Positions 60,340 through 63,739 of a stretch of 64,000 nt of DNA are shown here, in pieces. The stretch's first letter is position 1; every line of letters begins with the position of its first letter. Made by a program: the position numbers and the translations under genes. Source of the DNA: Streptomyces sp. RerS4. Lineage in GTDB: Bacteria; Actinomycetota; Actinomycetes; Streptomycetales; Streptomycetaceae. Location of the stretch: assembly GCF_023515955.1 (NCBI RefSeq), contig NZ_CP097322.1, positions 7,116,501-7,180,500 of the forward strand, written 5' to 3'. The notes under the pieces are model-generated. The model saw only the letters and a list, made by a program, of their open reading frames with translations, ran no database searches and was not told where the DNA came from.

Positions 60340-61005
60340 CTACGGGGCGCTGAAACCGGCCGCCCCGAACACTCCCGCACGCCCTGCCGCCACCGCTCCC
60401 GCCGCCGCCCGGCGGGGCAGGGCCGGATCCGGGGCGGACCGCAGGAGCAGCAGCTCGTGGTAGAGCGGGGCGGTCGCGGCGACCAGCAGCGCACGGGCGT
60501 CGACCGGACCCGGCAGCTCACCCCGCGCCGCGGCACGGACGGTGACCACCGCGCAGCGCGCGTAGCGGCCCTCCCAGAAGCGGGACAGGGCGCCGGCCGC
60601 CTCGGCCGAGCGGAATCCCGCGGCGATCAGGGCCGTGGTCACGTTCGGGCCGCCGCCGGCGAGGGCCTCGTACACCTCCTGGTTGAGGGCGGTCAGGTCC
60701 CCCTCCAGTGACCCCGTGTCGGGCGGGCTCCAAGTGTCGTCGGACGCCGCGCCGAGGACGTCCGCCAGCAGGCCTCCGACGTCACGCCACCGCCGGTAGA
60801 CCGTGGTGCGGTGCACCCCGGCGCGTTCGGCGACGGCGTCGACGGTGAGCCCGTCGTACCCGCCCTCGACCAGCAGTTCCCCCACGGCCTCCAGGACCTG
60901 CGCGCGGACCCGGGCGCTGCGGCCGCCCGGACGGGGCCGGGGGGTGTCCTGTTCGGAGTGGTTCGAGTGGCCGGATTCTTCGCTTGCTCGTGCGCTGGCA
61001 TCCAT
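60340..61005 (-). CDS. TetR family repressor of the resistance cassette
   Basis: 221 aa. The HTH reads RVRAQVLEAVGELLVEGGYD, GLTVDAVAERAGVHRTTVYR and RWRDVGGLLADVLGAA. The C-terminal ligand-binding half is helical (EGDLTALNQEVYEALAGGGP, ALSRFWEGRYARCAVVTVRA), of the TetR_C_16-like type, with an Ala/Arg-rich tail. The ATG at 61005 faces the ABC-F gene across ~117 bases that also contain the leader ORF. It is expected to repress the cassette and possibly itself. No perfect inverted repeat was found by eye in the gap. Confidence 0.88.
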   Translation of the reverse strand: MDASARASEESGHSNHSEQDTPRPRPGGRSARVRAQVLEAVGELLVEGGYDGLTVDAVAERAGVHRTTVYRRWRDVGGLLADVLGAASDDTWSPPDTGSLEGDLTALNQEVYEALAGGGPNVTTALIAAGFRSAEAAGALSRFWEGRYARCAVVTVRAAARGELPGPVDARALLVAATAPLYHELLLLRSAPDPALPRRAAAGAVAAGRAGVFGAAGFSAP

Positions 61006-61049
61006 GCAACGATCTTAACGCAACAGTCGTCGCGATAAGGAGTCCTCCG

Positions 61050-61148
61050 ATGGTTTCCCTGGCTCTCTCCCGCTCCCCTTCACCTGACCTCCAGCCCGCC
61101 CCCGAACCCCTGGAGCCGCTGCATGACCGCACAGCTCACCGCGCTTGA
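61050..61148 (+). CDS. Candidate leader peptide (uORF) of the ABC-F gene
   Basis: 32-codon ORF, MVSLALSRSPSPDLQPAPEP then LEPLHDRTAHRA, ending at TGA 61148. AAGGAG (61037-61042) stands 7 bases before its ATG, a better ribosome-binding site than that of the ABC-F gene itself. It overlaps the ABC-F start (61123) by 26 bases in another frame. The many Pro codons (SPSP, QPAPEPLEPL) could slow ribosomes. ARE ABC-F genes are known to be controlled by leader-peptide attenuation in several bacteria; assignment here is inference. Confidence 0.5.
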   Translation: MVSLALSRSPSPDLQPAPEPLEPLHDRTAHRA

Positions 61149-62787
61149 CCTGACCAAGTCCTACAACGGCCGCCCCGTCCTCGACTCCGTCGACTGCTCC
61201 GTCCCCGACGGCACCCGCCTGGGCATCGTCGGCGAGAACGGATCCGGCAAGTCCACCCTGCTCCGGCTGCTGGCAGGCGTCGAGCTCCCCGACCGGGGTA
61301 CGGTCACCGTCCGCGCCGACGGCGGCGTCGGATACCTCGCCCAGGAGGAGACCCTGCCCGCCGGCATGACGGTGCAGCAGGTCGTCGACCGCTCCCTTGC
61401 CGAACTGCACGCCATGGAAGACCGGATGCGCCGGCTGGAGGCCCGCATGGCGGACGGCGACACCACGGACGAGGTCCTCGCCTCCTACGCCGACCTGCTC
61501 ACCGCCTTCGAACTGCGCGGCGGGTACGAGGCCGACGCCCGGGTCGAGCGCGCCCTGCACGGCCTCGGCTTGCTCGGCCTGCCCCGCGACCGCACCGCCG
61601 GCGCCCTCTCCGGCGGCGAACAGGTCCGGCTCCGGCTGGCCGCGCTGCTGGCCTCCTCACCCGAGGTACTACTGCTCGACGAGCCCACCAACCACCTCGA
61701 CGGGGCAGCCCTGACCTGGCTCGAGGACCACCTGTGCGCCCGCCGCGGCATCACCGTAGCCGTCTCCCACGACCGGGAGTTCCTCGAGCGCGTCGCCACC
61801 TGCCTGCTGGAGGTCGACGGCGACCTGCACCGGACGGTGCGCTACGGCAACGGCTACGCCGGCTACCTCGCGGAGCGGGCGGCCGACCGGCAGCGCCGCG
61901 CCCAGGCCCATGCCGCCTGGTGCGCGGAGGCGGACCGGCTGCGCGAGTCCGCCGCCGTCACCGCCCGCCGGGTCGCTCCCGGCCGGGCGATCAAGGACGG
62001 CAACAAGATGGCCTACGACCGCGCGGCCGGCCGGGTGCAGCAGTCGCTGGCGAGCAGGGTGCGCAACGCCGAGGAGCGGCTGGCCCGCCTGTTGGCCGAT
62101 CCGGTCCCGGCGCCGGCCGAGCCCCTGCGGTTCACCCCCGTACCGCGCACCGCCGACCGACCCGGCACGGGCCGGCCGCACGGCGCCTCCCCGGACCGGA
62201 AGGGCGTGGTGCTCGCGGCCGACGGCATCGCGGTGGCGGGACGGCTCGCGCCCCTGGACCTGACCCTGTCGGCCGGCGGCAGGCTGCTGGTCACCGGCCC
62301 GAACGGGGCGGGCAAGAGCACCCTGCTCGGCGTCCTCGCCGGGACGGTCACTCCCGACCGGGGGCAAGTCGTACGGCGGGGCCGGACCGGCCTCCTGGCG
62401 CAGCGGACCGACGCGGGAGCAGGCGCCCGGACCCTTCTCGCCGCGTTCGCCGAGGGCCGCCCCGGCACGACCGAGGAGCACGCCGAGCGGCTGCTGTCGC
62501 TCGGCCTGTTCGCCCCGGAGCGGCTCACCGCTCGGGTCGTCACGTTGTCGGCCGGCCAGCGGCAGCGCCTGGCCCTGGCCAGGCTGGTCACCGAACCCGC
62601 CGACGTGCTGCTGCTGGACGAGCCCACGAACCACCTCTCGCCCGCGCTGGCCGAGGAACTGCAGGCGGCGCTGGCCTCCTTCGCGGGTGCCGTGGTCGTC
62701 GTCAGCCACGACCGGCGGCTGTGCGCCCGCTGGCAGGGTGAACGGCTCGGCCTGCACGCCCCGGAGTCGGCCGCCGTGACGGCATGA
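61123..62787 (+). CDS. ARE-type ABC-F ribosome protection protein
   Basis: 554 aa with two ABC domains and no membrane part. Domain 1: Walker A GENGSGKST (~38-46), signature LSGGEQVRL, Walker B LLLDEPTNH. The linker is rich in Arg/Ala (ERAADRQRRAQAHAAWCAEA, then RRVAPGRAIKDGNKMAYDRA). Domain 2: Walker A GPNGAGKST, signature-like LSAGQRQRL, Walker B LLLDEPTNH. This layout matches antibiotic-resistance ABC-F proteins of producers (TlrC, OleB, VarM types), which bind the ribosomal E site and dislodge drugs. It is followed after 43 bases by a virginiamycin B lyase gene, pointing to streptogramin/MLS protection. GGAG is 7 bases before the ATG. Confidence 0.93.
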   Translation: MTAQLTALDLTKSYNGRPVLDSVDCSVPDGTRLGIVGENGSGKSTLLRLLAGVELPDRGTVTVRADGGVGYLAQEETLPAGMTVQQVVDRSLAELHAMEDRMRRLEARMADGDTTDEVLASYADLLTAFELRGGYEADARVERALHGLGLLGLPRDRTAGALSGGEQVRLRLAALLASSPEVLLLDEPTNHLDGAALTWLEDHLCARRGITVAVSHDREFLERVATCLLEVDGDLHRTVRYGNGYAGYLAERAADRQRRAQAHAAWCAEADRLRESAAVTARRVAPGRAIKDGNKMAYDRAAGRVQQSLASRVRNAEERLARLLADPVPAPAEPLRFTPVPRTADRPGTGRPHGASPDRKGVVLAADGIAVAGRLAPLDLTLSAGGRLLVTGPNGAGKSTLLGVLAGTVTPDRGQVVRRGRTGLLAQRTDAGAGARTLLAAFAEGRPGTTEEHAERLLSLGLFAPERLTARVVTLSAGQRQRLALARLVTEPADVLLLDEPTNHLSPALAEELQAALASFAGAVVVVSHDRRLCARWQGERLGLHAPESAAVTA

Positions 62788-62830
62788 CGCCACGCCTCCC
62801 ACCACACCCCCGTTCCACGAAGGAGTCCGC

Positions 62831-63739
62831 TTGACGAACACCACCTCCGCGCGCCTGCTCCACACGTACACCGTCACCACCCCCGGGTCGGGCCCGTACG
62901 GCCTGACCGCCGGGCCCGACGGCAACCTCTGGTGCACCCTCGTGCACGGCGGACGCGTCGCTCGGCTCTCCCCGGACGGGCAGCTCGACGAGTTCGCACT
63001 CGATTCGCCCGACTGCGGCCCGTCCCTGATCGCTCCCGGCCCCGACGGCGCGCTCTGGTTCACTCGGAACCGGGACCACCGGATCGGCCGCGTCACCCCC
63101 GACGGGCAGTCGCGCTCGTACGCCCTGCCCGGCGCCGGATCCGGACCGTACGGGCTCACCGCCGGACCGGACGGCGCGCTCTGGTTCACCGAGCTGCACA
63201 CGGACCGCGTCGGCCGGATCACCCCGGAAGGGGAGGTCACCGAGTACCCGCTGCCGTGCGAGGGCGCCTTCCCGTCCTTCATCACGGCCGCGCCCGACGG
63301 CGACCTGTGGTGCACGCTCAACCAGGCGGACGCCCTCGCACGGATCACCGTGGCAGGCGACGTCCGGCTGTACCCGCTGCCCACGCCCGGCACGGCCCCC
63401 GTGGGGCTCGCGGCGTCGCCGGACGGTTCCCTGTGGTTCGCCGGGATCGGCGCGGGCCTGATCGGGAGGATGACGCCGGACGGTCGGGTCACCGAGTACG
63501 CGCCGGCGGACGCGCAGAGCCGGCCCCACGCGGTGGCGGTGGCCCCGGACGGTTCCTGCTGGTTCACCGAGTGGGCCGCCGGACGGATCGGGAGGGTCTC
63601 CCCGGACGGGCGGATCACCGAGGTCCCCCTCCCGGACCCCGGCTGCGAACCGCACGGGCTGGCTTTCGGCCCGGACGGCACGCTGTACGTCGCGCTGGAG
63701 AGCGGCGCGGTCACCCGGTGGGACGTGAGCGGGGACTGA
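62831..63739 (+). CDS. vgb: Virginiamycin B lyase (streptogramin B lyase)
   Basis: 302 aa, the length of known Vgb enzymes. It is a seven-bladed beta-propeller built from repeats such as GPYGLTAGPDGALWFTELHT and RVGRITPEGEVTEYPLP. The residues that line the Vgb active site are present: His233 in RPHAV, Glu273 and His275 in CEPHG, and Glu290 in ALESG, matching His228, Glu268, His270 and Glu284 of the staphylococcal enzyme as I remember it. It should linearise type B streptogramins by Mg-dependent elimination at the ester bond. The start is TTG with AAGGAG at 5-base spacing. Likely co-transcribed with the ABC-F gene. Confidence 0.9.
   Translation: MTNTTSARLLHTYTVTTPGSGPYGLTAGPDGNLWCTLVHGGRVARLSPDGQLDEFALDSPDCGPSLIAPGPDGALWFTRNRDHRIGRVTPDGQSRSYALPGAGSGPYGLTAGPDGALWFTELHTDRVGRITPEGEVTEYPLPCEGAFPSFITAAPDGDLWCTLNQADALARITVAGDVRLYPLPTPGTAPVGLAASPDGSLWFAGIGAGLIGRMTPDGRVTEYAPADAQSRPHAVAVAPDGSCWFTEWAAGRIGRVSPDGRITEVPLPDPGCEPHGLAFGPDGTLYVALESGAVTRWDVSGD

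What the first reader, a model, noticed from the sequence alone, without database searches (positions are those of the whole stretch)
60340..63739. Compact TetR / ABC-F / Vgb streptogramin self-protection cassette
An ARE ABC-F protein and a virginiamycin B lyase are adjacent and divergent from a TetR repressor. The lyase keeps all four catalytic positions. Ribosome protection plus drug cleavage in one unit suggests defence against type B streptogramins, yet no streptogramin biosynthetic genes lie in this window. It may be a stand-alone resistance island beside a transposon-like fragment at the right edge.
Basis: partly seen in the sequence, partly recalled or inferred. Interest (0 to 1): 0.7.

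Follow-up and report, generated by a model that had tools for sequence, protein, structure and literature searches.

The report
TetR-controlled ABC-F plus Vgb resistance cassette
A Streptomyces carries a small, conserved gene cassette, apparently switched by its own TetR protein, that combines a ribosome-protection protein with an enzyme predicted to destroy type B streptogramins; in two related species the two proteins are fused into one, which suggests they work as a unit against streptogramin-type antibiotics.

Summary
In detail: TetR (60340-61005, -), an ARE-type ABC-F (61123-62787, +) and a Vgb-family lyase (62831-63739, +) with all four catalytic residues. The trio is a recurring module, not a chance neighbourhood. 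It occurs in Streptomyces, Streptoalloteichus and Sinosporangium and on Streptomyces linear plasmids. The Vgb-linked ABC-Fs form one supported clade, and two sister species encode ABC-F and Vgb as one 851-854 aa polypeptide. New here: a 20-bp palindrome (AACGCAAC-N4-GTCGCNNT, window 61017-61036) precedes ABC-F, or Vgb where ABC-F is missing, in 39 of 43 TetR-linked loci, and has one match in the whole genome. It is the likely TetR operator. Most relatives, but not the window's own lineage, add a covarying hairpin that masks the ABC-F ribosome-binding site. The nearest NRPS condensation domain is 1.6 Mb away, so "self-protection" is unsupported; inducible intrinsic or acquired resistance fits better. 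The right edge holds a 45-bp IS5/IS1182 remnant followed by plasmid-like DNA. The lyase substrate and the ABC-F drug spectrum are inferred, not tested: the ABC-F drug-facing loop differs from the TlrC-like type. Parts are known; the linked, co-regulated, sometimes fused unit was not found in the papers searched.

The parts
60340..61005 (-). TetR-family regulator (TetR_C_11 type), divergent from the ABC-F gene; likely repressor of the cassette
   Evidence: PF16859 and PF00440; orthologues (44-83% identity) are divergent from ABC-F and/or Vgb in all 43 distinct TetR-linked loci compared
61017..61036 (.). Predicted TetR operator AACGCAAC-AGTC-GTCGCGAT (imperfect palindrome)
   Evidence: Conserved in 39 of 43 distinct loci at >=14/20 identities against 8 of 2400 shuffled regions; only match with <=2 mismatches in the whole 7.5-Mb genome; best PWM site in the window by a wide margin, 30.8 against 10.2 for the next place
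61050..61148 (+). Possible leader ORF (32 codons, MVSLALSRSPSPDLQPAPEPLEPLHDRTAHRA) with SD AAGGAG at 61037-61042; stop overlaps the ABC-F gene at +23
   Evidence: Start 11-14 nt after the operator and stop at +23 also in the nearest relatives L013, L137, L138, L144 and plasmid L181; no codon-position constraint on the sister-clade leader peptides, so translation is unproven
61123..62787 (+). ARE-type ABC-F ribosome-protection ATPase, 554 aa
   Evidence: NF000171 631 bits; member of a 23-row clade (support 100/100) that holds every Vgb-linked ABC-F in the tree
62831..63739 (+). Virginiamycin B lyase family protein (Vgb), 302 aa, TTG start, 43 nt after the ABC-F stop
   Evidence: PF24684 3.2e-129; catalytic H233, E273, H275, E290 present; only Vgb_lyase hit in the genome
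63782..63828 (.). Remnant of an IS5/IS1182-family transposase gene
   Evidence: 45-47 bp at about 91-100% identity in many Streptomyces plasmids, under 'IS5/IS1182 family transposase' or 'transposase'
63828..64000 (.). Start of a segment (to about 64299) 97% identical to a linear Streptomyces plasmid, ending near its parA/parB genes
   Evidence: NZ_CP108257.1 match; no Pfam family in the 86-aa frame

Best explanation
It is a self-contained, inducible resistance cassette against 50S-targeting drugs, centred on type B streptogramins. TetR binds the palindrome at 61017-61036, at or near the transcription start, and keeps the ABC-F/Vgb operon and probably itself low until an inducer is present. 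The ABC-F protein then frees drug-blocked ribosomes. The lyase linearises type B streptogramins by opening the ester bond, so that released drug cannot rebind. In most relatives a leader hairpin adds translational attenuation. In two sister species ABC-F and lyase are one polypeptide. Shown: genes, catalytic residues, conserved linkage, operator conservation, hairpin covariation in relatives, fusion. Inferred: TetR binding and its ligand, induction, drug spectrum, operon transcription.
For: Families and active site. Among 80 Vgb-bearing Streptomyces genomes, ABC-F hits split into 19 at >=670 bits and the rest at <=580 bits; 15 of the 19 lie next to Vgb, one is unresolved at contig ends, and none of the lower group is adjacent. 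Vgb-linked ABC-Fs form one clade, 100/100. Distances of TetR, ABC-F and Vgb correlate over 22 trios, r = 0.83-0.85, Mantel 0/2000. Operator conserved and unique in the genome. The plasmid copy without TetR (S. xanthii) also lacks the operator. ABC-F-Vgb fusions of 851 and 854 aa, with no Shine-Dalgarno-like sequence before the only in-frame start at the junction. WblC-controlled vgb counts as an intrinsic resistance gene in S. coelicolor (PMC7157823).
Against: No resistance, binding or enzyme measurement exists for these proteins. The ABC-F scores below the NF000171 cut-off (631 against 800), and its drug-facing loop differs from TlrC/CarA-like proteins. The SD-masking hairpin is not predicted for the window's own lineage (z about +1 to +2). 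Distance correlation may partly reflect species history.
Confidence: 0.72

Rival explanations
1. Complementary pair against the natural A+B streptogramin mixture: the ABC-F protects the peptidyl-transferase centre from streptogramin A (and lincosamides, pleuromutilins), while Vgb destroys the B component.
For: The ABC-F drug-facing loop (PGRAIKDGNKMAYDRAxGRVQQS) is unlike the TlrC/CarA-like L173 and resembles another actinobacterial group, L170/L175/L176. The leader start codon is kept but its peptide is not, as expected if drugs stall ribosomes at the start codon, which is reported for LSAP-sensing uORFs in S. coelicolor (PMC12421871).
Against: The best curated model and the tree place it nearer the TlrC/CarA/OleB/SrmB group, whose members confer macrolide / streptogramin B resistance. 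The L170 group could not be identified.
Confidence: 0.3
2. Producer self-protection: the cassette guards the cell against a streptogramin made by the same strain.
For: Closest ABC-F model is a producer self-resistance model. The genome has several NRPS regions, the main ones at about 0.33, 0.67-0.71 and 5.52-5.54 Mb, whose products were not assigned.
Against: Nearest NRPS condensation domain 1.6 Mb away; none in the flanks of any of 72 Vgb loci. The module is scattered over many species and plasmids. The Vgb of S. virginiae, the species known for virginiamycin, also has no NRPS condensation domain in its flanks.
Confidence: 0.06
3. The Vgb-like protein acts on a different cyclic depsipeptide or lactone and the ABC-F serves another drug class; the link with streptogramins is only inherited annotation.
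For: Identity to characterised Vgb proteins is moderate and the NCBIfam VgbA/VgbB cut-offs are not reached, 252 and 293 bits against 600. Vgb-like genes are very common, 93 of 295 Streptomyces species.
Against: All four catalytic residues and most repeat-core residues are conserved. Linkage to, and fusion with, a ribosome-protection ABC-F points to a ribosome-targeting drug.
Confidence: 0.15

Closest known systems
Vgb(A)/Vgb(B) streptogramin B lyases of staphylococci (PDB 2z2n, 2z2p, 2qc5)
   Same: Same family over the full length; H228, E268, H270, E284 all conserved
   Different: Chromosomal actinobacterial form, co-directional with an ABC-F under a predicted TetR operator; below the curated Vgb(A)/Vgb(B) cut-offs
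ARE4 ABC-Fs TlrC / CarA / OleB / SrmB (macrolide producers)
   Same: Best curated model; neighbouring clade in the tree; about 49-54% identity to its members
   Different: Own clade linked to TetR and Vgb, below the family cut-off (631 against 800), different drug-facing loop, no NRPS cluster nearby
ARE5 ABC-Fs LmrC / Are5sc / TiaA with ribosome-mediated attenuation (PMC12421871)
   Same: Streptomyces ABC-F preceded by a short ORF and a regulatory 5' leader
   Different: Reported ones are described with a terminator/anti-terminator leader and no link to Vgb is reported there; here the relatives' hairpin masks the ABC-F SD, and a TetR operator is added
WblC regulon of S. coelicolor, which includes vgb (PMC7157823)
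   Same: Intrinsic, inducible resistance including a Vgb
   Different: Control there is by WblC; here a local TetR with its own predicted operator

Membership tests
Vgb streptogramin B lyase | Full-length Vgb_lyase propeller domain | tested here: met
   PF24684 430 bits, residues 11-296 against profile 4-289 of 290
Vgb streptogramin B lyase | Catalytic His228, Glu268, His270, Glu284 | tested here: met
   H233, E273, H275, E290 in the alignment to 2z2n
Vgb streptogramin B lyase | Curated Vgb(A) or Vgb(B) name (NCBIfam cut-off 600) | tested here: not met
   252 and 293 bits: a relative, not the clinical alleles
Vgb streptogramin B lyase | Linearises type B streptogramins | not testable with these tools
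   needs an enzyme assay
ARE ABC-F ribosome protection protein | Two NBDs in one chain, no transmembrane domain, interdomain linker | tested here: met
   two ABC_tran stretches and no other domain found, EttA/Msr/ExpZ-type hits, linker alignment
ARE4 (TlrC/CarA/OleB/SrmB) | NF000171 score of at least 800 | tested here: not met
   631 bits, whereas L173 scores 813
ARE4 (TlrC/CarA/OleB/SrmB) | TlrC/CarA-like interdomain loop | tested here: not met
   loop differs from L173
Translational attenuator (ermC type) | Leader stem that masks the downstream SD | tested here: inconclusive
   met in an alignment of 20 relatives: 26 cells changed on both sides, 0/500 shuffles as high; not predicted for the window
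Translational attenuator (ermC type) | Translated leader peptide | tested here: inconclusive
   SD and start conserved, but no third-position excess
Self-resistance gene of a biosynthetic cluster | Location in or next to the cluster | tested here: not met
   nearest NRPS condensation domain 1.6 Mb away

The most novel reading that the evidence does not exclude
ABC-F and Vgb form one functional machine: the ABC-F ejects streptogramin B from the ribosome and the lyase, held in the same complex or chain, destroys it before it can rebind. Expression would be gated twice, by a TetR that senses a drug or related signal and, in most relatives, by ribosome-stall attenuation in the same leader.
Probability: 0.2. 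Interest if true: 0.75.

Novelty: new variant of a known kind. Interest (0 to 1): 0.52.

Why it matters
Ribosome protection and drug destruction are usually treated as separate resistance mechanisms. A conserved cassette that pairs them under one predicted operator, and in two sister species fuses them, would be an integrated streptogramin defence in soil bacteria and a candidate reservoir, since it also sits on linear plasmids. The predicted operator and the covarying leader give directly testable switches, and the fusion gives a simple way to ask whether evicted drug is handed to the enzyme.

Tried and rejected
A streptogramin biosynthetic cluster at the locus: rejected. The attenuator hairpin in the window itself: tested and not supported. 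Coding constraint on the leader peptide: tested and not seen. A known RNA family at the locus: none. Right-edge ORF as an intact transposase: no Pfam hit and single copy in the genome; it is an IS remnant plus plasmid-like DNA. Naming the L170-type ABC-Fs through published TiaA/Are5sc uORFs: no match. A genus-wide ABC-F search independent of Vgb failed twice on the server, so how often this ABC-F clade occurs in Vgb-negative genomes is unknown. NRPS adenylation specificities of the own-genome clusters were not worked out. No structures were predicted. The PNAS paper on the Vgb structure is not held, so the residue roles rest on the PDB chains and on general knowledge.

Full report
Observation. 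Pfam and NCBIfam agree on the families. The lyase aligns end to end with staphylococcal Vgb chains. Its H233, E273, H275 and E290 fall on H228, E268, H270 and E284 of 2z2n, and the set is kept in 92 of 100 relatives. It is the only Vgb_lyase match in the genome. The window lies about 120 kb from the end of a 7.30-Mb chromosome contig.

Conserved linkage. Of 79 Vgb loci fetched from GTDB species, 12 carry the same TetR | ABC-F | Vgb order, including Streptoalloteichus (L041) and Sinosporangium (L082). Vgb itself is common: 93 of 295 Streptomyces species. In the 80 best of these genomes, ABC-F hits fall into two sets with a gap between them: 19 at >=670 bits and the rest at <=580 bits. Fifteen of the 19 are next to Vgb, one (G073) is unresolved because both genes are at contig ends, three are elsewhere, and none of the lower set is adjacent. 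In a 55-row tree the high set forms one clade with 100/100 support, beside a clade of TetR-linked ABC-Fs without Vgb (clade B) and a clade that includes a TlrC/CarA-type protein above the curated cut-off (L173, 813 bits). Pairwise distances of the three proteins correlate over 22 trios (r = 0.83-0.85), as expected for joint inheritance, though species history contributes.

Fusion. In S. sedi (L036/L150) and S. zhaozhouensis (L038/L152) the ABC-F and the lyase are one open reading frame of 854 and 851 aa. They are joined by a proline/alanine-rich linker, and the only in-frame start codon in the junction has no Shine-Dalgarno-like sequence before it. The two species are sisters in the tree, so this is probably one event.

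The predicted TetR operator. TetR orthologues occur in three settings: with ABC-F and Vgb, with ABC-F alone, and with Vgb alone (L040, L068, L109, L111). L060 is a fourth kind: a TetR, a visible remnant of an ABC-F gene and Vgb. The gap between TetR and the next gene holds the palindrome AACGCAAC-N4-GTCGCNNT in nearly all of them: 39 of 43 distinct loci score >=14/20, against 8 of 2400 shuffled regions. The consensus was drawn from the window and L118, so those two do not count as independent. In the window the site is 61017-61036, and it is the only place in the genome within two mismatches. In the S. xanthii plasmid copy, where TetR is missing, the operator is missing too. Six Vgb genes without a neighbouring TetR also carry a similar site upstream, so one TetR may act on distant Vgb genes. 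That TetR binds this site is an inference.

Leader. Just past the operator, most loci of the Vgb-linked clade have a ribosome-binding site and start codon at a fixed distance, 11-14 nt in most and 55-69 nt in the S. albus group. In an alignment of 20 relatives the leader folds into a nested hairpin whose 3' arm contains the ABC-F Shine-Dalgarno. On an alignment made without reference to structure, 9 pairs show changes on both sides and 26 cells do, with no shuffle of 500 as high on cells changed; slid controls pair 30-44% of cells against 84%. L118, used as an example, has an ABC-F that appears to have lost a large internal part. The window and its nearest relatives (L013, L137, L138, L144 and plasmid L181) keep a start codon and a stop at +23, but not the hairpin. 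Codon positions show no coding constraint on the leader peptides. So translational attenuation is well supported as an RNA structure in the sister lineages and is an open question for the window itself.

What it probably does. An intact lyase beside a ribosome-protection factor points to a drug of the large ribosomal subunit, and type B streptogramins are the natural lyase substrate. The curated model and tree place the ABC-F near the ARE4 group, described as conferring macrolide and streptogramin B resistance. However, it fails that family's cut-off, and its interdomain loop is not of the TlrC/CarA type but resembles another actinobacterial group. It may therefore protect against streptogramin A, lincosamides or pleuromutilins instead, which would complement the lyase. 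The spectrum is left open.

Not self-protection, and mobile. No NRPS condensation domain lies within 1.6 Mb, nor in the fetched flanks of any of 72 Vgb loci. Copies lie on linear Streptomyces plasmids (NZ_CP108163.1; NZ_CP109590.1, which adds a second, convergent ABC-F). At the window's right edge, positions 63782-63828 match a stretch of an IS5/IS1182 transposase gene found on many plasmids, and the following roughly 470 bp are 97% identical to a linear plasmid near its parA/parB genes. This fits a chromosome-arm cassette that exchanges with linear plasmids; direction and date are not known.

Novelty. ABC-F proteins, Vgb lyases, TetR control and ABC-F attenuation are each known (PMC12421871, PMC10201436, PMC7157823). 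Searches of the open-access library for papers joining Vgb lyase and ABC-F, or describing a Streptomyces Vgb operon, listed no paper whose title or abstract describes this unit; the listed papers were not all read, and subscription papers were not searched. I rate it a new variant of a known kind.

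Noticed in passing
L150:1495-4056 and L152:1495-4047 (S. sedi, S. zhaozhouensis): ABC-F and Vgb encoded as a single 854/851-aa polypeptide with a Pro/Ala-rich linker.
   Followed up: yes
L154-L164 (clade B ABC-F loci): A related TetR | ABC-F pair without Vgb, whose intergenic region appears in most to hold two tandem copies of the same palindrome about 40 bp apart.
   Followed up: partly
L112, L114, L030, L113, L023, L014 upstream of Vgb: Operator-like sites upstream of Vgb genes that have no TetR nearby; three of these genomes (G294, G064, G194) carry the clade B TetR/ABC-F pair elsewhere, so control may act at a distance.
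   Followed up: partly
L182:5963-7618 and L183:5881-7527: On two linear plasmids a second, convergent ABC-F of another type follows Vgb; G161 (L125) looks similar.
   Followed up: partly
L060:9696-9875 and L118: Decayed or internally deleted ABC-F between TetR and Vgb, suggesting repeated loss of the ABC-F with Vgb retained.
   Followed up: partly
G000:C1:666273-706558: NRPS region with seven condensation-domain matches in this genome; product not assigned.
   Followed up: no
window 54445-55902: FAD-dependent halogenase-like protein (Trp_halogenase 5.5e-35) next to a GCS2-family ligase gene (53251-54432).
   Followed up: no
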